A stretch of DNA of 64,000 bases from contig NZ_CP089932.1 in the NCBI RefSeq assembly GCF_021365465.1, forward strand, positions 3,534,001 to 3,598,000. Reading direction: 5' to 3'. The stretch comes from Erwinia tracheiphila (GTDB lineage Bacteria; Pseudomonadota; Gammaproteobacteria; Enterobacterales; Enterobacteriaceae). Below the pieces are notes generated by a model. The model made no database searches and was not told the origin of the DNA. It worked only from the letters and a program-made list of their open reading frames with translations. This document shows, piece after piece, positions 3,274 to 54,729 of this stretch; positions within the stretch are counted from its first letter, which is position 1, and each line of letters begins with the position of its first letter. The position numbers and the translations under genes were made by a program.

Positions 3274-3343
3274 TTTTCATTTTCCGTCAGCATAAAGCGT
3301 GGCGGTAAGGATAACATTTTCGCCATTGCGCGTAAAAATAACG

Positions 3344-3374
3344 AAAAAAGGGGGCACTGTAATAACAGTGCCCC
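3344..3374 (-). terminator. Rho-independent terminator of csrB
   Basis: On the minus strand the stem GGGGGCACTG pairs with CAGTGCCCCC around a short TTATTA-like loop and is followed by six T. It defines the 3' end of CsrB. Confidence 0.93.
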
Positions 3375-3656
3375 CAATTCGTTCGCAGCAATCCAGCTAC
3401 ATTAATGCTCCCTGCTCATCCTTGATAACTTTGTCCCTGATTGTTTCCTACATTTCACCGTCTATGGTGATACTCCCTGAGCATCCCAGCTCGCTATCTT
3501 ACTGATAGCTCACGATCTCCGTCCTGGAGGTGTCCCTTATCTCTTCCTGAGAGGTCCCTTTATCTTCATCCTGAAGACCGTCCCTGCAGCATCATCCAGA
3601 TGTGTCCTGATCCAATCCATGAATCACAGCATCCTTTCCGATGAGGTTTATTCTGC
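3344..3656 (-). ncRNA. csrB: CsrB/RsmB regulatory RNA
   Basis: Read on the minus strand, this gene-free stretch carries about 20 GGA triplets, many as AGGGA, CAGGA or AAGGAT in predicted hairpin loops, which is the signature of RNAs that sequester the CsrA/RsmA translational regulator. It lies between yqcC and syd, exactly where csrB lies in E. coli. It ends in a strong Rho-independent terminator. A -10-like TATGAT (minus strand, 3663-3668) puts the 5' end near 3656; this end is an estimate. Short open frames across the region are shadows. In Erwinia and Pectobacterium this RNA (rsmB) controls extracellular enzymes, motility and exopolysaccharide under GacS/GacA-type control. Confidence 0.93.
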
Positions 3657-10365: not shown

Positions 10366-10566
10366 ACTTCCAGAGCCGTAACGAAAAGCTGCGTGAAATT
10401 AAGTCAGTCAGGTGAGATTTTTGCGGGCGTTTGGCTTGTGGCGGTGATGTTGTGTTTGCAATTGGTCCGGCATTTTGCTGACTTGGTAGCATCGCTACTT
10501 TTATTCTTCAGATTCACCCTGTCTGTCCACAAAGATTATTAGCACCGCAACTGCGGTGCTTTTTTA
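10366..10566 (+). ncRNA. gcvB: GcvB small regulatory RNA
   Basis: About 200 nt, close to the 205 nt of E. coli GcvB. The 5' end ACTTCCAGAGCCG, the GU-rich R1 target-binding stretch (about 10433-10472, including TGTGTTTGCAATTGG), the segment GGTAGCATCGCTAC (a small hairpin) and the late CCCTGTCTGTCCA are all recognisable. It ends at a terminator hairpin, AGCACCGCAA paired with the CTGCGGTGCT half, followed by T residues. GcvB is an Hfq-dependent repressor of many amino-acid and peptide transporter mRNAs. The small protein frame over this region is a shadow. Confidence 0.96.
10540..10566 (+). terminator. Rho-independent terminator of gcvB
   Basis: The stem AGCACCGCA/TGCGGTGCT with a very short loop is followed by six to seven T. 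It is the 3' end of GcvB and lies just before the left end of the IS200-type element. Confidence 0.92.
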
Positions 10567-10571
10567 TCCCT

Positions 10572-32655: not shown

Positions 32656-33203
32656 AAGTTTTCTGCCGTTACCCAGCTTTCAAGGGTGACGGACGACTGA
32701 GGAAAAGCCAGTGCAGTACCGCTGAGTTTCAAACGAATTTGCCTGTTAACCCGTAAAACCTGAAACGCCGTGATGGTAATTGCAGAAGGATCGTTCAGTT
32801 TTTCCCACCCGGATGAGGTGCAGCTGTCCACGCCGCGCTGCGCCTCCAGAGAACCTTCACGCAATCGATAGCCATAGTAATCACTATTCTGGTTTTCGAC
32901 GTCTTCCCATTTGCCATTGCTGTTTTCATCCCAGCGAAGCAGCAGACAGGTTCCGCTCTGTTGCACAATGCTCAACGCGCCCTCGCCACACTCTCCACGA
33001 CAGTAGCCTGCCCGACGCACCGCTTTTTCCAGGGTTCCCATTATCAGTCGCAGTTCCTCATTCAGCTGTAGCATCATCAGCATACGTAAATCGGCAATTT
33101 GTAACTGCGGCACAAACCGGGCCGCGCCCAACAAAAGCACGCTGGTGATTGCCAACGCAATCAGTATCTCCGGCAAAGTAAAGCCTGAATGCTTCACTGG
33201 CAC
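32652..33203 (-). CDS. ppdB: prepilin-peptidase-dependent protein PpdB
   Basis: A 183-residue minor pseudopilin (PilW-like). Leader MPVKHSG is followed by FTLPEILIALAITSVLLLGA; predicted cleavage after Gly7 leaves Phe at +1 and Glu at +5. Overlaps of 4 bp with ygdB and 10 bp with ppdA show a tightly coupled operon. Confidence 0.9.
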   Translation of the reverse strand: MPVKHSGFTLPEILIALAITSVLLLGAARFVPQLQIADLRMLMMLQLNEELRLIMGTLEKAVRRAGYCRGECGEGALSIVQQSGTCLLLRWDENSNGKWEDVENQNSDYYGYRLREGSLEAQRGVDSCTSSGWEKLNDPSAITITAFQVLRVNRQIRLKLSGTALAFPQSSVTLESWVTAENL

Positions 33204-33643
33204 AACCTCTCACAAATACGCACTCTGGCGCGAGATGAAACGATCAGATGACGTTCTCCAGCGTCGTTAGAAATAATAATCCTGCCTGCTCTGGCCACAT
33301 TGCGACGACCATAAAACCCCATGCCTTCGGTCAGTGAATCCAGCTGAATCTCCGGCCACTGAGTGATAAATACCTGCCGTTGCGCTGAACACGTTGCGGG
33401 AAATGGCCCACTGCCTATGCACCATATTTTACCAGGCCGCTGCCATAACAGCGCCTGCTGATTGTGCCAGTTTGCTTCGTTACGTAACTGCAACAGAAAA
33501 TGCTGAAGCTGCCTTGCACTGGCATTGAGCCGCTGTCGCTGCTGCCAGTGTTGCCAGCCGCTGACCGCCGTTAACGTCAGCGCACTGGCTATCACTATTA
33601 CAATCAGTAATTCGATTAGTGTGAATCCGTTTAACTTTTTCAT
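33194..33643 (-). CDS. ppdA: prepilin-peptidase-dependent protein PpdA
   Basis: A 149-residue pseudopilin (GspH/FimT type). The start at 33643 gives MKKLNGFTLIELLIVIVIAS: leader of six residues, cleavage after Gly6, Glu at +5. The frame is open upstream to 33691 but that extension lacks leader features. It is the first gene of the ppdA-ppdB-ygdB-ppdC operon. Confidence 0.92.
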   Translation of the reverse strand: MKKLNGFTLIELLIVIVIASALTLTAVSGWQHWQQRQRLNASARQLQHFLLQLRNEANWHNQQALLWQRPGKIWCIGSGPFPATCSAQRQVFITQWPEIQLDSLTEGMGFYGRRNVARAGRIIISNDAGERHLIVSSRARVRICERLCQ

Positions 33644-34305
33644 GGCCTTCAATTTGAGATTTTTAAGCAAAAACGTCGAGTGAGTAATCACAGTTTTGCG
33701 TGGCCGTTTACAGAGGATCGCGATAATAAGAAAACAGAAGAAAAATCAATGCGGCGGCTGTCACAATTGCGAAATGCTTTTTGTTAACAGTTTTCTCTGA
33801 ATATTACAGCAGGATAAGGATAATTTCAGGGGGGTATGACAGCGAAGATAAGATAATTTCAATATCTATTTTCATAAAGAAGTGCCAAAAGTTAGCTCTG
33901 ATATGAAAATACGAGCAAAAGCGCATTCAGACACATAATTCCTCTCAATCTGGCCAGAGCAATAGAGAGGTGACGCTGCTATTTGTAATTATTAAACAAT
34001 GCTTACCGGGCCATTTTTATCGGTCATGTGAAATATTCAGTCGATCAATGTTATTTTCATTTCCTTTTAAATAAAAAAACAAATTCAGAAAATTCTTATC
34101 AAGAAATACTTTATTATTTTTAATATCACTACAGACTGGCACTTAGCTGAAAATCTCGTCAGACAAAACTTTTCCATTAAAAAAACTGGCTATACTTTAA
34201 TAAAAACCTGTTTTCACCTGAGTTAATTAAGTAATAGCTTCTATACTTACGTGCAATTTACCCAAAAAAATCTCTGTACTTCAAACGGTACTTAAAAGGA
34301 TAGAC
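33644..34305. other. AT-rich intergenic region before the accessory operon
   Basis: About 660 bp without a credible gene, noticeably richer in A+T than the flanking backbone. It holds the ppdA promoter on the minus side and the promoter of the accessory operon on the plus side. This is the left junction of the island between ppdA and thyA. No tRNA, attachment-site repeat or integrase was seen. Confidence 0.6.
34170..34196 (+). promoter_or_regulatory. candidate promoter of the accessory biosynthetic-type operon
   Basis: TATACT at 34191-34196, in the context GGCTATACTTTAA, resembles a sigma-70 or sigma-S (CTATACTT) -10 element; a weak TTTTCC lies about 15 bp upstream. It is 110 bp before the first start codon. 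Assigned by eye only. Confidence 0.4.
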
Positions 34306-35073
34306 ATGGACACACCATACTTTTTTCATCTGTCAGGGAAAACAGCGTTAATAAGCGGTGGGTTACGTGGATTAGGGCTACACATTGCCGAAGCGCTGGA
34401 TATTCAAGACACCCATCTCGTTATTTCCGCCCACCATCATGACGAATTACGAAAAACACAGTCGCATCTTTCGTCAATGAACATTGAGGCGGACTGGATT
34501 GTGGCTGATAATACGATTAATGGCAATACAGAGTACCTTTCTGAGGAAGCAATATCGAAAACAGGAAAAATAGATATTCTGGTTAATAATGCCGGAATAG
34601 TCTCTGGCGCAACGGCGGAGGATCATACCGTTGAAGGGCGGGACCGCATGATGAACCTCAATATTCGCAGCCATTTTTTACTGACGCAAATCATCGGTAA
34701 GCGCAGGATGATCCCACGTAACTGTGGGAAAATTATTAATGTCGCTTCCGTCGCGGGTTTACAAGGAAATATACCCAGCTGGCTGGAGGGTATCGCCTAT
34801 AGCACCAGCGAAGGGGCAATGGTGAATTTTACCCGCGCTCTGGCGGGTGAATGGGGTGAGTTTAATATTACCGTGAATGTGCTGGCTCCCGGTTTTTTCC
34901 CCTCTGCGATGCCGCGTAATCTTTTCAGTCGGCTCGGCACGGATTTTTTAGCACAGAGAGCGCCGCCCGGGCGTATTGGCGATGATAAAAATTTGAAAGG
35001 TGCCGCCATTCTTTTTGCCTCCAATGCCAGTAAATATATAACAGGCCAAATCCTGGTGATTGACGGGGAATGA
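34306..35073 (+). CDS. SDR-family oxidoreductase with altered active site
   Basis: A 255-residue short-chain dehydrogenase, closest in style to gluconate-5-dehydrogenase/3-oxoacyl reductase types. Cofactor loop SGGLRGLGL near residues 17-25, NNAG near 95, catalytic Ser148 (NVASVAG) and Tyr165. The lysine of the YxxxK motif is replaced by glutamate: Y165-STS-E169, codon GAA at 34810-34812. Without that lysine the protein should have little or no dehydrogenase activity. The C-terminus ends early at VIDGE, where relatives continue several residues beyond DGG. It is first in the accessory operon, 159 bp before the TauD-like gene. Confidence 0.88.
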   Translation: MDTPYFFHLSGKTALISGGLRGLGLHIAEALDIQDTHLVISAHHHDELRKTQSHLSSMNIEADWIVADNTINGNTEYLSEEAISKTGKIDILVNNAGIVSGATAEDHTVEGRDRMMNLNIRSHFLLTQIIGKRRMIPRNCGKIINVASVAGLQGNIPSWLEGIAYSTSEGAMVNFTRALAGEWGEFNITVNVLAPGFFPSAMPRNLFSRLGTDFLAQRAPPGRIGDDKNLKGAAILFASNASKYITGQILVIDGE

Positions 35074-35232
35074 GTGCCATCTGACGCCCTTGCAGCATGT
35101 CATTATCCTAGGCTTGTAATTTTTCTCAGCGTGCTCAACAACGCCGGATGAAGGCGAGCTGTATTACAGGCCGCGTGACAACAATATTTATTTATGAGCC
35201 TGTTCAGTTACTTTAATTAAGGAATAATTCTG

Positions 35233-36069
35233 ATGCAAAGTTGCTTTGATGGATGGTCACCAAAAGTTATTGACTGTGAGGATGAACGGGCAGTGATTTC
35301 ACATATTGTAAACCACCGCTTTGCCGTCGTCAGCAGTGAATGGAAATATGATGAATCCGACTTCCAAAAAATGTCCACACTTTATTCATTAGGTCAGATT
35401 TATCAGTCGGATTTCAATTACCTGGAGCACAAAGAAGGTGTACGAGATTCGGGAATTAATCAAATTGGTGGGCTGGCACAGGGTACGCATGAGGTTTTTA
35501 ACAGCACCACTCGCCTTTCTCTTCATACCGATGGTTCTTATATTCCCATTGGCAGTATTAAAACGTCGATTCTTCTTTGTAAACAACATGCAGCACAGGG
35601 TGGCACGACCGTTTTATTTGACAGTACCTCCGCCTTTCAACAGCTAAAGGCCAGACACGCTGATTTGGCTGATATCTTACTGCAAGAAAATATTTTCCGG
35701 CGACGTTCAACGTGGACCCATTCTGGAAAAGAATATTCTCATATTGGTCCCCTATTTCGTCCCGATGAAAATGGGGGATTTATTGGTGGATTTACGCTCG
35801 ATACCACGGCTGACTGGGATTATTCACGCACGATTAATCCCCGCGCTGTCGAGGCTGTTGAATATCTTTCGCATCTGGCAACGCCGGGCAGCCGTTATTA
35901 TCTGGAATTTCCTCTGATGAAAGGACAAGCCCTGATTCTTCGCAACGATAAATTATCTCACGGGCGTCAGGCTTATATTGACGATCCCGGTAACCCAAGA
36001 ACACTACTGCGTGGTTTATTCACTCAGGCCCCAATGTTGGTGACGTCATCGAGGAGAGAGTATGAATAA
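35233..36069 (+). CDS. TauD/TfdA-family Fe(II)/2-oxoglutarate dioxygenase
   Basis: A 278-residue clavaminate-synthase/TauD-like oxygenase. The iron triad is His98 and Asp100 (LHTDGSY) and His243 (LSHGRQ), and an arginine downstream (PRTLLRG, near 256-260) would hold 2-oxoglutarate. GGTTVLFDSTSAF near 130 is a family block. Substrate unknown; the family hydroxylates or desaturates small acids and amino acids. The start has AAGGAAT upstream. Its end overlaps the sulfotransferase start by 8 bp. Confidence 0.9.
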   Translation: MQSCFDGWSPKVIDCEDERAVISHIVNHRFAVVSSEWKYDESDFQKMSTLYSLGQIYQSDFNYLEHKEGVRDSGINQIGGLAQGTHEVFNSTTRLSLHTDGSYIPIGSIKTSILLCKQHAAQGGTTVLFDSTSAFQQLKARHADLADILLQENIFRRRSTWTHSGKEYSHIGPLFRPDENGGFIGGFTLDTTADWDYSRTINPRAVEAVEYLSHLATPGSRYYLEFPLMKGQALILRNDKLSHGRQAYIDDPGNPRTLLRGLFTQAPMLVTSSRREYE

Positions 36070-37111
36070 TTTTTCAATTGCGGAATCCGCCCTGACGGCA
36101 TGTTGGGAAGGTTGGCTGATATGTCCGAGGGAGCATCTTCAGCTGCAGATGCAGGCGGATCTGGGCACCAGGACAATCAGTAAGAAAACGCTGTCCAGAA
36201 TGGTGGCATTCGTCAACGAATACCGTCTTTCAGGCATAAACTGGAGCAAACAGGGAATACGTGGCGATGAAATTCAGAATGGGCTTAAAAGTTTACAGCA
36301 TGAACATCCCGCCTGTTACAGGCTGTTTAGCGAGAAAATAGCACTTGCTGAACATTATAAATGGCTGGGCGGAAGCCTGAGCGCGGACATCCTGGCGGCA
36401 CAAACTCGCTATAAGAAATTTGCAATAGTATCAACGCCCAGAGCAGGTACTCATCTTCTTCGTACCATGTTGGGCTCTCACCCAACGATTGAAATGCATG
36501 GTGAAGCATTTAACCGATTTGGTCAGTATCTACTACCTTACCGCGTTAAGGACACCCCAGTAAAAACGATTCTGGATCGCCATCTTTTCAAGCCCTGCTT
36601 CGAATATGTTGAAGCCGTTGGTTTCGTCTTGTTCCGCGATCTGGATAGCGACTGGGGCGATACGCCTGTCTGGCCGGCCTTGCAGGCAATTCCAGACCTG
36701 AAGCTTATCCTGCTGGAGAGACAAAGCCGCCTGCAACAGTTCGTTTCCCTGAAAAAAAGCCTGCGTGATCGTATCTGGTACATCGGACTACAGGATAATC
36801 GCCCAACATCAGCAGAAAAAATAACGGTGTGCGTTGATGAATTAACCGATTTCATTGATAAAAACGGTGAAAATCAGGCCGCATTTTATCAAGCCTTCCA
36901 GCATCACGATATTCTTTCCCTTAATTACGAAGATGTCATTACCGGGCCAGATGATGCAGCCCGTCGCTTGCTCTCTTTCCTCGGCGTGTCTGATTTCAGG
37001 CTATGTGCAGGAACAGGCAAAAAAGAAATCCGACCGATTCATTCCGTCATTAGTAACGTTGACGAAATTCAAACCAGACTAAAAGGGACAAAATATGAAT
37101 CCTGCCTCTAG
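36062..37111 (+). CDS. PAPS-dependent sulfotransferase-like protein
   Basis: A 349-residue protein. The 5'-phosphosulfate loop STPRAGTHLL is at residues 124-133, followed by GSHPTIEMHGEAFN; LLERQSRLQQFVSLKKS near 220 fits the 3'-phosphate-binding region, and LNYEDVI near 288 is another family block. These match bacterial sulfotransferases (sulfotransfer_3 or Stf0 type). The first ~115 residues are an extra domain I do not recognise. It would transfer sulfate from PAPS to a hydroxyl or amine of a small molecule. It overlaps both neighbours (8 bp before, 17 bp after). Confidence 0.82.
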   Translation: MNNFSIAESALTACWEGWLICPREHLQLQMQADLGTRTISKKTLSRMVAFVNEYRLSGINWSKQGIRGDEIQNGLKSLQHEHPACYRLFSEKIALAEHYKWLGGSLSADILAAQTRYKKFAIVSTPRAGTHLLRTMLGSHPTIEMHGEAFNRFGQYLLPYRVKDTPVKTILDRHLFKPCFEYVEAVGFVLFRDLDSDWGDTPVWPALQAIPDLKLILLERQSRLQQFVSLKKSLRDRIWYIGLQDNRPTSAEKITVCVDELTDFIDKNGENQAAFYQAFQHHDILSLNYEDVITGPDDAARRLLSFLGVSDFRLCAGTGKKEIRPIHSVISNVDEIQTRLKGTKYESCL

Positions 37112-38339
37112 CGCATATTGGCCCCCCTATACGGTTTTAACACAACAGGATCGGCGGCCCGTTATTCAGCGAGGCGAAGGTGTCTACCTTTACGACGATC
37201 ACGGCAGACGCTATCTGGATGCCATTTCCGGTTGTTACAATCATTGTCTCGGACATTCTCATCCAGAATTTATCGCGGCGCTGCAGCAGCAACTATCCAC
37301 GCTAATTCATGCCTGCAATATCTATTCGAACACACAGCTTCCCGGCGAAATGGCAGAAAAACTGGTGGCCAGGCTACCTGATACCGCCCTTCATAAAACA
37401 TTTATTGTGGGCAGCGGCAGCGAAGGCGTAGAAAGTGCGCTAAAAATGGCATGGCAGTACCAGGTCAATGCCTCACGCCCGCAGCGCACGAGGATCGTGG
37501 CTATCGAGGGGGCATACCATGGCTGTACGCTTGGTGCGATGATGGCCACAAGACGCTCTTTTATTAATGAGGGAATTTTACCGTCTGTACTCGCCAGCAA
37601 TACGGTCACAATGCCGTTTCCGCAGCATCCCGATGATATTAAAGCCTGGGAAATCCTGCTGGAAGAACAGCAGTCAACCCTCGCCGCCGTGATTATAGAA
37701 CCGATTATGGCAATGGAAGGTACCAGACAATTCCCTGACGGTTTTCTGCAGCAGCTATCAAGGCTCACCCGGCAGCACGATATTCTACTGATCTGTGATG
37801 AAGTTTATTGTGGCATTGGCCGTGCAGGGGCATTTTGTGAGTCAGTTTCGCAAGGTGCGCATCCTGACATTGTTATTTTCAGTAAATGCCTGGGGGGAGG
37901 TGTCCCTGTCACTGCCGTGTTGGCGACTGAAGCAATCGCTGACAGCTTTAGCGGCCAGACTCTTCCCTTTTTTCGCCATGGTCACACCCAATCCGGCAAC
38001 CTGCTGGGCTGCAGCGCGGCACTCTTCGTGCTTGATTATCTTGATAATCATTACCTGCTGGATGGTGTGGTAACCAAAGGAGAGCAGCTGCTGGAGCTGG
38101 CTAGAGAGCAACTGCCTGAAACAGAAGGGCTGATTAGCCTGCAGGGAAAAGGGCTGATGTTATCTATAACCTTTGCATCCCCTGAACTCTGCAGCCGGGC
38201 GCAGTCGGCTATTCGTCAGCAGGGGGTTATCGTCGGTGCGGCAGGACCCTATTTAAAACTGGCACCGGCCTTTACGATTTCGTCCCGGGAGATAGCGGAA
38301 CTCACTGAGCGCATGGCGACGGGCCTGAAAAACCTGTAA
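37095..38339 (+). CDS. class III PLP-dependent aminotransferase
   Basis: A 414-residue aminotransferase of the ornithine/GABA/beta-alanine group. The PLP lysine is K264 (FSKCLGGG), preceded by the ICDEVYCGIGRAG block whose Asp contacts the pyridine nitrogen; the phosphate loop is GSGSEGVESALKMA near 105. Acts on a terminal amine or aldehyde; the substrate cannot be read. The start codon lies 17 bp inside the sulfotransferase gene, so translation is coupled. No neighbour supplies an obvious known pathway. Confidence 0.92.
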   Translation: MNPASSAYWPPYTVLTQQDRRPVIQRGEGVYLYDDHGRRYLDAISGCYNHCLGHSHPEFIAALQQQLSTLIHACNIYSNTQLPGEMAEKLVARLPDTALHKTFIVGSGSEGVESALKMAWQYQVNASRPQRTRIVAIEGAYHGCTLGAMMATRRSFINEGILPSVLASNTVTMPFPQHPDDIKAWEILLEEQQSTLAAVIIEPIMAMEGTRQFPDGFLQQLSRLTRQHDILLICDEVYCGIGRAGAFCESVSQGAHPDIVIFSKCLGGGVPVTAVLATEAIADSFSGQTLPFFRHGHTQSGNLLGCSAALFVLDYLDNHYLLDGVVTKGEQLLELAREQLPETEGLISLQGKGLMLSITFASPELCSRAQSAIRQQGVIVGAAGPYLKLAPAFTISSREIAELTERMATGLKNL

Positions 38340-38381
38340 CGGACGTCTGAGCCCTCAATTCTGCCAGGAGAGAATAAAAGC

Positions 38382-39034
38382 ATGGCTAATTACTTCGATT
38401 TTAAGCGTATCGCCGACGGTAAACGGCATCAAACGCCCTTTACCTGGGGAGAACTGACGCAGATATGGTGCAACGCATCTGTTGCCGCCACGCCTGCTGA
38501 CGAACTTCCCACTGATGGATTTAACTATCGTGAACGTAACGGGGGTTACTTTTACCGTCGTACGCTGATCCCTCTCGCGTCCGGTAAAGTCAGCGATGCC
38601 AATACGCTGTCAGTGGCATCGCAGGAAATGTGCGCCGAGCTGGTATGCCAACGCTTTACCACCACGCTGTCCACCTTTTGTGGCGACGATCTTTCCAACT
38701 ACAAAATGGAGGCCGTTGCATTTCGCGGCGGCAGAGAAACACATTACCAACCGCATGTCGATGCCTAGTTGAAGCGAGGTTATCGACTGATTATCTACTT
38801 TAAAGCAGAGTGGGAGGAAAGCTGGGGAGGCACCTTTCGCATTCTTAACCCGTTGAACCATGCTGAGGTATGCCATTCTGTTCTGCCGATCATGGGCAAC
38901 GCCGCGTCATAATTCGTACCAACCACCATGAAACCTGGCATGAGGTGGTGCCGTTAACCGGCGTTTCCGTCAAGACACGCAACGCTTTAAATGTCACCTG
39001 GTATGATGCCAGCACGATGAGTACGGCGCAGTGA
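38382..39034 (+). pseudogene. 2-oxoglutarate/Fe(II) oxygenase, broken by a stop and a frameshift
   Basis: The first 128 codons encode the N-terminal half of a prolyl-4-hydroxylase-type oxygenase, ending in YQPHVDA with the HxD iron ligands. A TAG at 38766-38768 stops it. Beyond the stop the same frame continues (LKRGYRLIIYFKAEWEESWG, then GTFRIL) to a TAA at 38910-38912. Shifting frame near 38895-38905 restores RVIIRTNHHETWHEVVPL, which carries the distal His, and runs to a TGA at 39032-39034. So there are two lesions. A good ribosome site (AGGAG) precedes the ATG, 42 bp after the aminotransferase. Confidence 0.87.
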
Positions 39035-39573
39035 GAAAGCTGGTTTTTATTTATGGTGCGCCAGCAGTGGGAAAGCTTACCGTCGGCCGCCTGCTGGCGA
39101 AAGATATGCAGGCAACGCTGTTTCATAACCATATGACATATGACTTAGCGATGGAGCTGCTGGCGTCTGAGCATGAATTCAGCACTGTCAGGCATTTTGC
39201 CTGCAGGCTGAGGCTTTATGCACTGACGCTACTGTTTGAGGAAAGCCAGCGCGATATCGTCACAACCTTCTGTTACGAAGGCAGTAAAGATGACAGGTAC
39301 ATTGAGGACATCCGCAGCGCATGCGGGAAACACCGCATCACGCCATTTTTTGTGCAACTTCGCAGCGATCGGGAGAATCTGTTAAAACAGGTTGAAAGCC
39401 CTGACCGACGCCGGTTTGGTAAGATGGATACCCAGGCAAAACTTAAAGAGATTCTGAAACAGTGTGATTACAGCAGCGTAATAGAGGCTGCGCATCATCG
39501 CACATTTCATACATCCTTGATGTCACCACAAAAAATTGTTGATCATCTACTGCTCTGGTTCTCCTCACCCTGA
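39031..39573 (+). CDS. P-loop kinase-like protein
   Basis: A 180-residue P-loop NTPase starting with GTG. Walker A is GAPAVGKLT at residues 9-17, and the lid-like region is around RSDRENLLKQ near 115. It resembles small nucleoside/shikimate-kinase-like proteins of the AAA_33 type. The GTG overlaps the original TGA of the broken oxygenase (GTGA), so the gene was coupled to it and belongs to the same operon. It might phosphorylate the pathway product, for activation or self-protection; this is a guess. Confidence 0.78.
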   Translation: MRKLVFIYGAPAVGKLTVGRLLAKDMQATLFHNHMTYDLAMELLASEHEFSTVRHFACRLRLYALTLLFEESQRDIVTTFCYEGSKDDRYIEDIRSACGKHRITPFFVQLRSDRENLLKQVESPDRRRFGKMDTQAKLKEILKQCDYSSVIEAAHHRTFHTSLMSPQKIVDHLLLWFSSP

Positions 39574-40302
39574 AATTCAGAGAAACAGGTAACCTAATCG
39601 GTATTGGCAGTGAATGGTCAACACAATTTCCGGGCTATCTTGCTGGTGCAATCGATGCTGCTTCAGTGGGAATCCGACTGTGGTCGCAACAGAGATGAAC
39701 CATACCCTAAAGCGGTGCGGCGTTTGTGAAGCAGAGTAATAATTTTCAAAAAAACGCGCTTATGTTTAAAAGCTTCTTTCTCACTGGCAGAGATCTTTGA
39801 ATGTGCGCTTCAGGCCCAGAGCGATCTGTCAGATTAGATTTGGTGCTGTGTCAGTTCCAATCTGAGCTAATTCAGCAGATGTGAAGTCCAGAGCCTCATT
39901 AAACCGCAGGCCCGGTGCGGTGAAGATCCTGGGGCTTCTGATGTAAGGTGCATTTCTGCCCGGGGTAGTATCCATATTCGCGAAAGTGTCCATACCGGGA
40001 AACCTGGGCAAAAAATAAAAAACGATGTGTATGCGACGATGACGGAAATACCGCGCTGGAAAGAAAATGGTGCCTACCGCCATTCTATCCGCTCAGGTCA
40101 GGTCAGGAAGATTAAAGCGTAAGGCAAAGTTCAGGGGGCTACGTTATCCTGCCCGATGTCAGCTTGAGAATAACAGCACTGTGAAAGGCCAGACTGCCAG
40201 ATTCGGCCTGAAAGGATAGCAACAGAGGACAGTCGTTCGACGGCCCGAGGCAAACTGCAAACAGCGAAATCTCAGCAGCCGCCTCGCCGCTGCTGAGATA
40301 AC
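39574..40302. other. gene-poor degenerate region between the accessory operon and thyA
   Basis: About 730 bp with no credible intact gene. A frame on the plus strand ending at 40122 (coding IPRWKENGAYRHSIRSGQVR near its end) and an 84-codon minus frame at 39829-40083 are mutually overlapping and lack clear start signals. They look like remnants of a decayed gene that I cannot identify. This is the right junction of the island. Confidence 0.5.
40269..40299 (-). terminator. hairpin behind thyA
   Basis: An 11-bp perfect stem, ATCTCAGCAGC at 40269-40279 and GCTGCTGAGAT at 40289-40299, with a 9-base loop, lies four bases past the thyA stop. There is no clean T run, so it may stabilise the mRNA end or act with Rho. 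Confidence 0.6.
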
Positions 40303-41097
40303 TCATATCGCTACAGGTGCCTTGATAGCAGGATGCGGGTCATACCCTTCGATCTCAAAATCCTCAAAGCGGTAATCAAACAATGACGCCGGTTTGCGTT
40401 TGATGATCAATCTGGGCAGTGAGCGCGGCTCACGCGTCAGCTGCAGACGCGTCTGTTCCAGATGATTGCTGTAAAGGTGGGTGTCTCCGCCTGTCCAGAC
40501 AAAATCACCCGGCTCCAACCCGCACTGCTGCGCCATCATATGCACCAGCAGCGCATAGCTGGCAATATTGAAAGGCAAGCCGAGGAAAATATCGCAGGAA
40601 CGCTGGTAAAGCTGGCAGGAAAGTTTACCGTCAGCAACGTAGAACTGGAAAAACGCATGACAGGGTGCCAACGCCATCTGATCCAGTTCGCCGACGTTCC
40701 AGGCAGAAACAATAATACGCCGCGAATCCGGATCGCTTTTTAGCTGCTGTATTGCCTGAGTGAGCTGATCGATCTGACGCCCATCGGCAGCACCCCAACT
40801 GCGCCACTGTTTACCATAGATCGGCCCCAAATCGCCCTTTTCATCAGCCCATTCATCCCAGATAGTGACCTTATTATCCTGCAGATAAGCCGTGTTGGTA
40901 TCGCCGTTGAGAAACCACAGCAGCTCATGAATGATTGAGCGCAGGTGACACTTTTTGGTTGTCACAAGCGGAAAACCTTCCTGCAAATTGAAACGCATCT
41001 GGTGGCCAAAAATGGACAGGGTGCCGGTACCGGTTCGGTCATTTTTTGGTGTACCTTCGGTGAGCACTTTTTGCATTAACGCCAGATACTGTTTCAT
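40303..41097 (-). CDS. thyA: thymidylate synthase ThyA
   Basis: A 264-residue enzyme converting dUMP to dTMP with methylene-THF. The nucleophile is Cys146 in [10 protein letters not shown], followed by [20 protein letters not shown]. The start at 41097 gives [12 protein letters not shown] and the E. coli length; the frame opens upstream inside lgt. The ATG overlaps the lgt stop by four bases, the usual coupling of lgt and thyA. Confidence 0.98.
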
Positions 41098-54635: not shown

Positions 54636-54664
54636 AAAAAAAACCCACGCACGCGCGTGGGTTG
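54636..54664 (-). terminator. Rho-independent terminator of the OmrA-like RNA
   Basis: Stem AACCCACGC/GCGTGGGTT around a short loop, followed on the minus strand by eight T. Confidence 0.92.
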
Positions 54665-54729
54665 GTGCAATCAAAAGGCTGTAAATCTGCCGGGAGCAGA
54701 TTACTTTACCACCAATCAATATCTCTGGG
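54636..54729 (-). ncRNA. omrA: OmrA/OmrB-family small RNA
   Basis: Read on the minus strand, the 5' end CCCAGAGATATTGATTGGTG is nearly identical to the conserved seed of OmrA/OmrB (CCCAGAGGTATTGATTGGTG in E. coli OmrA). The 3' part TTGCACCAACC leads into a strong terminator. The middle differs, as it does between OmrA and OmrB. The location between aas and galR is the omrAB locus. Length is about 94 nt (E. coli 88 and 82). Only one copy is seen. The family is OmpR-activated and represses TonB receptors, OmpT, csgD, flhD and ompR through Hfq. Confidence 0.92.

What the first reader, a model, noticed from the sequence alone, without database searches (positions are those of the whole stretch)
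34306..39573. Unrecognised small biosynthetic-type operon between ppdA and thyA
Six co-directional genes with overlaps or short gaps after the first encode an SDR, a TauD-like dioxygenase, a PAPS-type sulfotransferase with an extra N-terminal domain, a class III aminotransferase, a second 2OG oxygenase (broken) and a P-loop kinase-like protein. This set does not match a pathway I know. One inference is hydroxylation by the dioxygenase, sulfation of the new hydroxyl as a leaving or final group, and transamination, giving a modified amino acid or small antimetabolite. No carrier protein, ligase, exporter or regulator is nearby.
Basis: partly seen in the sequence, partly recalled or inferred. Interest (0 to 1): 0.85.

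Follow-up and report, generated by a model that had tools for sequence, protein, structure and literature searches.

The report
Decaying Erwinia copy of avrD-operon core
Six neighbouring genes in an Erwinia genome are a partly broken copy of a gene set that several unrelated plant-disease bacteria share and that in one of them aids growth on bean; it probably makes a small molecule that nobody has identified.

Summary
In detail: six co-directional genes (34306-39573) lie between ppdA and thyA. They are not an unrecognised set. The last five (TauD-type dioxygenase, sulfotransferase, class III aminotransferase, small 2OG oxygenase, P-loop kinase) match, in order and strand, the tail of the Pseudomonas syringae avrD operon (the four intact ones 41-62% identical). 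That operon is published as HrpL-controlled, deleting its 2OG gene reduced growth on bean, and its product is unknown (PMC3879358). The five-gene order is complete in 22 of 23 distinct fetched records from Erwinia, Pectobacterium, Xanthomonas, Paracidovorax and the P. syringae group. Among these, avrD and a phosphatase lead only P. syringae copies and the SDR only Enterobacterales copies (8 of 8). The core thus recurs without AvrD, which argues against syringolide as product.

New here: Erwinia copies, the SDR-led variant, and decay. The window's 2OG gene is broken; its SDR lost the catalytic lysine and has 35 unique residues against 5 in E. psidii; the other four look constrained. 27 of 30 Erwinia thyA loci read have ppdA nearby and no operon. 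Most likely: a horizontally spread pathogen cassette for a hydroxylated, sulfated amino-metabolite, degrading here. The chemistry is inferred.

The parts
34306..35073 (+). SDR (short-chain dehydrogenase), decayed: catalytic Lys of YxxxK is Glu, C-terminus 4 residues short
35233..36069 (+). TauD-type Fe(II)/2OG dioxygenase, core gene 1 (PSPPH_A0110 equivalent)
36062..37111 (+). PAPS-type sulfotransferase with helical N-terminal domain (about residues 1-115), core gene 2 (PSPPH_A0109 equivalent)
37095..38339 (+). class III PLP aminotransferase, core gene 3 (PSPPH_A0108 equivalent)
38382..39034 (+). broken small P4H-like 2OG-Fe(II) oxygenase gene, core gene 4 (PSPPH_A0107 equivalent): in-frame TAG ends the first ORF at 38768, a frame shift follows
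39031..39573 (+). P-loop small-molecule-kinase-like protein, core gene 5 (PSPPH_A0106 equivalent)
33194..33691 (-). ppd minor pilin gene (ppdA), left border of the insertion site
40303..41094 (-). thyA, right border of the insertion site

Best explanation
The locus is the Enterobacterales, SDR-led version of the five-gene core of the P. syringae avrD operon: a horizontally spread cassette of plant pathogens that builds a small virulence-related metabolite distinct from syringolide. Inferred working order (none of these steps shown): the TauD-type enzyme and the P4H-like enzyme hydroxylate an amino-acid-like precursor; the SDR, where present, oxidises or reduces one of the oxygenated carbons; the class III aminotransferase exchanges a carbonyl for an amine; the sulfotransferase sulfates a hydroxyl or amine from PAPS, as final group or leaving group; the kinase phosphorylates the intermediate or product (activation, or protection of the producer). 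In this genome the cassette is decaying: SDR with its catalytic lysine gone, P4H-like gene broken, other four still looking constrained.
For: Same five genes, order and strand in P. syringae plasmids and in 22 of 23 distinct fetched records (the exception, L008, is cut by an IS91-family element). PMC3879358 (passages): HrpL-dependent by RNA-seq, two junctions checked by RT-PCR, reduced bean growth of delta-A0107 and delta-avrD, small-molecule role proposed. AvrD HMM found in the P. syringae plasmid of L006 (199 bits) but not in G000, E. psidii or E. mallotivora, so the core occurs without AvrD. In one search the source-named relatives above the score drop are from Erwinia, Pectobacterium, Xanthomonas, Ralstonia and Paracidovorax, plus one Streptomyces and one Planctomycetes MAG. 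Horizontal spread: Paracidovorax (betaproteobacteria) nests among Xanthomonas; 27 of the 30 Erwinia thyA loci read have ppdA 158-1121 nt away; E. mallotivora is among these 27 and holds its copy elsewhere. Decay. Catalytic residues kept in TauD, sulfotransferase and aminotransferase.
Against: No metabolite is known and no enzyme of the set has been assayed in anything I found. The SDR is missing outside Enterobacterales and avrD outside P. syringae in the fetched records, so products may differ between lineages. No hrp box was found upstream of the window, E. psidii or E. mallotivora copies, so the published HrpL control may not carry over. Against long-standing SDR death: its pairwise dN/dS is still low (0.065-0.124 for the window pairs), so loss of constraint is at most recent. 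The sulfotransferase cluster of the window species is on 23 contigs but the truncated 2OG on 6, so how widely the break is shared is unsettled. Four constrained genes beside two damaged ones could mean recent decay or a shorter working pathway. dS is above 1 in the window comparisons, so dN/dS ratios are rough. Core G+C differs clearly from the flanks only in some lineages.
Confidence: 0.72

Rival explanations
1. The core modifies and inactivates a plant-derived hormone or defence compound (hydroxylation, sulfation, phosphorylation, transamination) instead of making a metabolite from bacterial precursors.
For: Near confinement to plant-pathogen genera; two 2OG oxygenases with a sulfotransferase resemble plant hormone catabolism (recalled); no exporter among the five core genes.
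Against: An aminotransferase plus kinase in fixed order suits a biosynthetic chain better; no plant substrate shown.
Confidence: 0.15
2. The P4H-like oxygenase and the sulfotransferase modify a secreted peptide that mimics a plant hormone (as recalled for RaxST and RaxX of Xanthomonas).
For: Nearest sequence or fold matches of the two proteins include P4H-type and tyrosylprotein-sulfotransferase structures.
Against: No conserved small precursor ORF within 500 nt upstream of TauD or downstream of the kinase on the + strand in 17 loci: the matches read (15 of 35) are out-of-frame overlaps with the TauD start in Xanthomonas and Paracidovorax. Aminotransferase and kinase do not fit. The fold matches are weak (TM 0.24-0.42).
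Confidence: 0.04
3. In the window organism the cluster still works as a four-enzyme pathway without SDR and 2OG, making a shorter or shunt product.
For: TauD, sulfotransferase, aminotransferase and kinase show no marked excess of unique changes over E. psidii (12/8, 10/12, 11/8, 10/5) and have intact reading frames.
Against: The 2OG gene is present in 22 of 23 other distinct records and its deletion has a phenotype in P. syringae; no second copy was found in this genome.
Confidence: 0.15

Closest known systems
P. syringae avrD operon, PSPPH_A0112-A0106 (PMC3879358)
   Same: TauD, sulfotransferase, aminotransferase, 2OG oxygenase, AAA/P-loop protein in the same order and strand; window against P. 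syringae: aminotransferase 62%, TauD 56%, sulfotransferase 50%, kinase 41%
   Different: No avrD, phosphatase or csrA beside the core and no hrp box upstream in the window; an SDR leads; chromosomal; SDR and 2OG gene damaged
Pectobacterium and Erwinia SDR-led clusters (L011-L015, L029, L016, L017)
   Same: All six genes in the same order; window and E. psidii share the ppdA-thyA site
   Different: SDR lysine kept in the five aligned; 2OG gene open in E. psidii, E. mallotivora and P. aroidearum as aligned; several frames of L029 are broken in that assembly
Xanthomonas and Paracidovorax five-gene clusters (L018, L020-L023, L025-L028)
   Same: Core five in the same order
   Different: No match to the SDR (60 bits or more), avrD or phosphatase in the fetched stretches
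Fe/2OG oxygenase DfmD and gamma-butyrobetaine dioxygenase (TauD superfamily; DfmD's pathway is recalled as dehydrofosmidomycin)
   Same: Nearest solved relatives of the TauD-type enzyme by sequence include these
   Different: Weak similarity (34 and 22 bits), so the substrate cannot be inferred

Membership tests
P. syringae avrD operon (PSPPH_A0112-A0106) | TauD-ST-AT-2OG-kinase order on one strand | tested here: met
   the 2OG member is broken in the window
P. syringae avrD operon (PSPPH_A0112-A0106) | avrD as first gene | tested here: not met
   AvrD HMM rings in the P. syringae plasmid and not in G000, E. psidii or E. mallotivora
P. syringae avrD operon (PSPPH_A0112-A0106) | histidine phosphatase and csrA beside the core | tested here: not met
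   no match at E 1e-6 in window 24001-50000 or in the other Enterobacterales loci; rest of the genome not searched for these two
P. syringae avrD operon (PSPPH_A0112-A0106) | hrp box upstream | tested here: not met
   exact box in L005, L006, L007 and L024 (4 of 4 avrD upstreams scanned); none with up to 2 mismatches in window 33700-34330
P. syringae avrD operon (PSPPH_A0112-A0106) | HrpL-dependent expression and virulence phenotype | not testable with these tools
   published for P. syringae (PMC3879358, passages)
PAPS sulfotransferase | 5'-phosphosulfate loop (TPRxGTHxxRT) and Arg/Ser of the 3'-phosphate site | tested here: met
   R127, G129, T130, R134, R220, S229 invariant in 30 sequences; motif assignment recalled
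TauD/2OG dioxygenase | HxD...H iron triad | tested here: met
   H98, D100, H243 invariant in 6 sequences; assignment recalled
class III aminotransferase | PLP lysine | tested here: met
   K264 invariant in 6 sequences, assignment recalled; 282 bits to PF00202
classical SDR (active) | YxxxK catalytic pair | tested here: not met
   Y165 kept, Lys replaced by Glu in the window; YSTSK in 5 of 5 relatives aligned
P4H-like 2OG oxygenase (active) | one open frame with HxD...H | tested here: not met
   stop plus frame shift
APS kinase | APS-kinase sequence family (PF01583) | tested here: inconclusive

The most novel reading that the evidence does not exclude
The five-gene core makes a new class of sulfated, hydroxylated amino-metabolite, unrelated to syringolide, that plant pathogens of two proteobacterial classes acquired repeatedly and attached to different lead genes (avrD plus phosphatase in P. 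syringae, SDR in Enterobacterales, none in Xanthomonas and Paracidovorax) that tailor it.
Probability: 0.45. Interest if true: 0.78.

Novelty: new variant of a known kind. Interest (0 to 1): 0.52.

Why it matters
What the non-avrD part of the avrD operon makes was left open in 2014 (PMC3879358), and I found no later answer in the papers searchable here. AvrD-free natural versions in several genera reduce the question to five enzymes and argue against syringolide as the product. The lineage-specific lead genes and the decaying Erwinia copy act as natural experiments on which enzymes depend on one another. A metabolite shared by soft-rot, canker and leaf-spot pathogens would interest plant pathologists and natural-product chemists.

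Full report
OBSERVATION. Family searches give SDR, TauD, Sulfotransfer_3, Aminotran_3 and a weak AAA_18. The fifth gene carries an in-frame TAG and, further on, a frame shift; intact relatives of it are PF13640 2OG-Fe(II) oxygenases. The sulfotransferase has a conserved helical N-terminal domain of about 115 residues.

WHAT IT IS. tblastn against plasmids found the aminotransferase at 62% and the sulfotransferase at 50% identity on P. syringae-group plasmids. Of 108 plasmid records with a sulfotransferase match (15 of them Pseudomonas) I opened four. All four show avrD - histidine phosphatase - TauD - sulfotransferase, and three go on with aminotransferase - 2OG oxygenase - AAA protein - csrA; the fourth, L008, is cut inside the aminotransferase by an IS91-family element. 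This is the avrD operon of PMC3879358 (passages seen): HrpL-dependent by RNA-seq with RT-PCR over two junctions, reduced growth of delta-avrD and delta-A0107 on bean, product unknown, similar operons noted in Xanthomonas, Acidovorax, Pectobacterium and Ralstonia. Its authors already argued that the downstream genes are not needed for syringolide, since E. coli with avrD alone makes it; they also cite earlier work in which an avrD replacement showed no growth defect. The broken gene in the window corresponds to A0107, which PMC2856684 lists as a putative SanC oxygenase (passage). PMC3639832 lists A0109 with a ratio of 0.49 among genes differing at 18 C (passage).

DISTRIBUTION. A genome-contig scan with the sulfotransferase alignment gave 19 loci, in Pectobacterium, Erwinia, Xanthomonas, Pseudomonas and Paracidovorax (the scan needs exact motif matches, so a lower bound). 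Together with six loci fetched otherwise (L005-L010) that is 25 loci, 23 distinct records (E. psidii and E. mallotivora were each fetched twice). All were found through the sulfotransferase. The full five-gene order is present in 22 of 23, the exception being L008; in L029 several frames are broken in the assembly but the order is kept. The SDR leads the core in 8 of 8 distinct Enterobacterales records besides the window and has no match of 60 bits or more in the 15 others. AvrD was seen in 5 of 6 P. syringae-group records (the sixth, L019, is a short contig that begins inside the phosphatase gene) and in none of the 17 others; the phosphatase in 6 of 6 and none of the 17 others. The 2OG profile (22 hits) and the TauD profile (27 hits, only the 7993 candidates sharing most words scored) name overlapping genera; the TauD list also has distant relatives such as Nodosilinea (130 bits). 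The gene is rare: 3 of 36 genomes of the genus, own genome included, and 0 of 24 others of the order; 2 of 392 of the family, own genome included. Each of these two searches also gave one weak partial match (G023, 78 residues, E 1.6e-4) that I did not count.

MOBILITY. thyA was found in 37 of 37 genus genomes; the 30 best were read. Of these 30, 27 have ppdA 158-1121 nt away, so no room for the operon; the other three are the window, E. psidii (operon at the same site; flanks align) and G031 (ppdA not seen in the 1.5-kb flank). E. mallotivora has the site empty and its copy elsewhere. In a tree of four concatenated core proteins (18 copies, midpoint-rooted) Paracidovorax nests among Xanthomonas (support 0.98), and X. 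albilineans carries the core at 52.9% G+C against 65.7% in its flanks; in other lineages the difference is small (window 49.3 against 52.6) or reversed (L027). The window itself was named Erwinia by inference: its genome is labelled same genus as G025 and G010, whose contig lengths equal those of the E. psidii and E. mallotivora records.

DECAY IN THE WINDOW. The SDR has Glu for the catalytic Lys (YSTSE against YSTSK in 5 of 5 relatives aligned) and ends four residues early. Counting residues unique to one of eight enterobacterial copies: SDR 35 of 255 in the window against 5 in E. psidii; TauD 12/8; sulfotransferase 10/12; aminotransferase 11/8; kinase 10/5 (E. mallotivora, more distant, has 11, 12, 23, 32 and 18). 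The separate pieces of the 2OG gene show 18 unique residues in 219 aligned columns (four counted twice) against 5 in E. psidii. NG86 dN/dS of the four intact genes is 0.05-0.15 in the pairs that could be computed; the SDR's is also low (0.065-0.124 in window pairs, 0.06-0.08 in the others), so its loss of constraint is at most recent. dS exceeds 1 in the window comparisons and several pairs gave no value. The 128-residue truncated 2OG product (P0085) and the window's TauD (P0087) are each recorded on 6 contigs with the same longest contig (27,534), which suggests that other assemblies share the break; but the window's sulfotransferase (P0003) is on 23 contigs, so the spread of the break is not settled. 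No intact close relative appears among the 22 hits. No second copy was found in the genome.

REGULATION. The published avrD hrp-box sequence (PMC5424326, passage) was recovered exactly upstream of avrD in 4 of 4 P. syringae loci scanned, but no match with up to two mismatches upstream of the window, E. psidii or E. mallotivora copies. Two Pectobacterium upstreams (L015, L012) gave weak, unshared matches.

HOW IT MAY WORK. Kept catalytic residues are compatible with working TauD, aminotransferase and sulfotransferase. Nearest solved relatives: DfmD first, gamma-butyrobetaine dioxygenase further down, for TauD; NodH (36.7 bits) and CurM (20.7) for the sulfotransferase by sequence; an 'aspartate aminotransferase family protein' and an acetylornithine aminotransferase for the aminotransferase, at the 1e-60 limit I set; a P4H-like protein (48.8 bits) for the 2OG enzyme; and a tie of small-molecule kinases, APS kinase included, for the kinase fold. 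Hydroxylation, transamination, sulfation and phosphorylation of an amino-acid-like scaffold is the simplest reading and is inference. Because TauD-ST-AT-2OG-kinase recurs without AvrD, phosphatase or SDR, the core should suffice for a product, and lead genes should tailor it.

VERDICT. A real, conserved and partly known system, here in a further genus and a distinct SDR-led variant, in decay.

Noticed in passing
L005 13755-13991, L006 13755-13991, L007 11751-11987: A carbon storage regulator (csrA-type) gene follows the kinase gene in the P. syringae avrD operon context.
   Followed up: no
window 39574-40302: About 730 nt separate the kinase gene from thyA, against about 190 nt in E. psidii (L009); no NCBIfam match in the one ORF tested. 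Possibly a relic.
   Followed up: partly
window 33700-34300: G+C falls to about 33-36% in the region upstream of the operon.
   Followed up: no
L008 9076-11003: In P. amygdali pv. morsprunorum R15244 the operon is interrupted inside the aminotransferase by an IS91-family element; plasmid records H15 and H45 also match only partly.
   Followed up: no
P0031 and P0104: Streptomyces sp. NPDC006476 proteins, both listed with a 5,084-base contig, match the sulfotransferase and TauD; could be contamination or a real transfer.
   Followed up: no
P0028 and P0086: A 7,632-base contig length is shared by a 48-49% sulfotransferase and a diverged (37%) 2OG relative: perhaps a more distant cluster type.
   Followed up: no
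window 3340-3643 (-), 10366-10567 (+), 54636-54729 (-): Known sRNAs CsrB, GcvB and OmrA/B.
   Followed up: no
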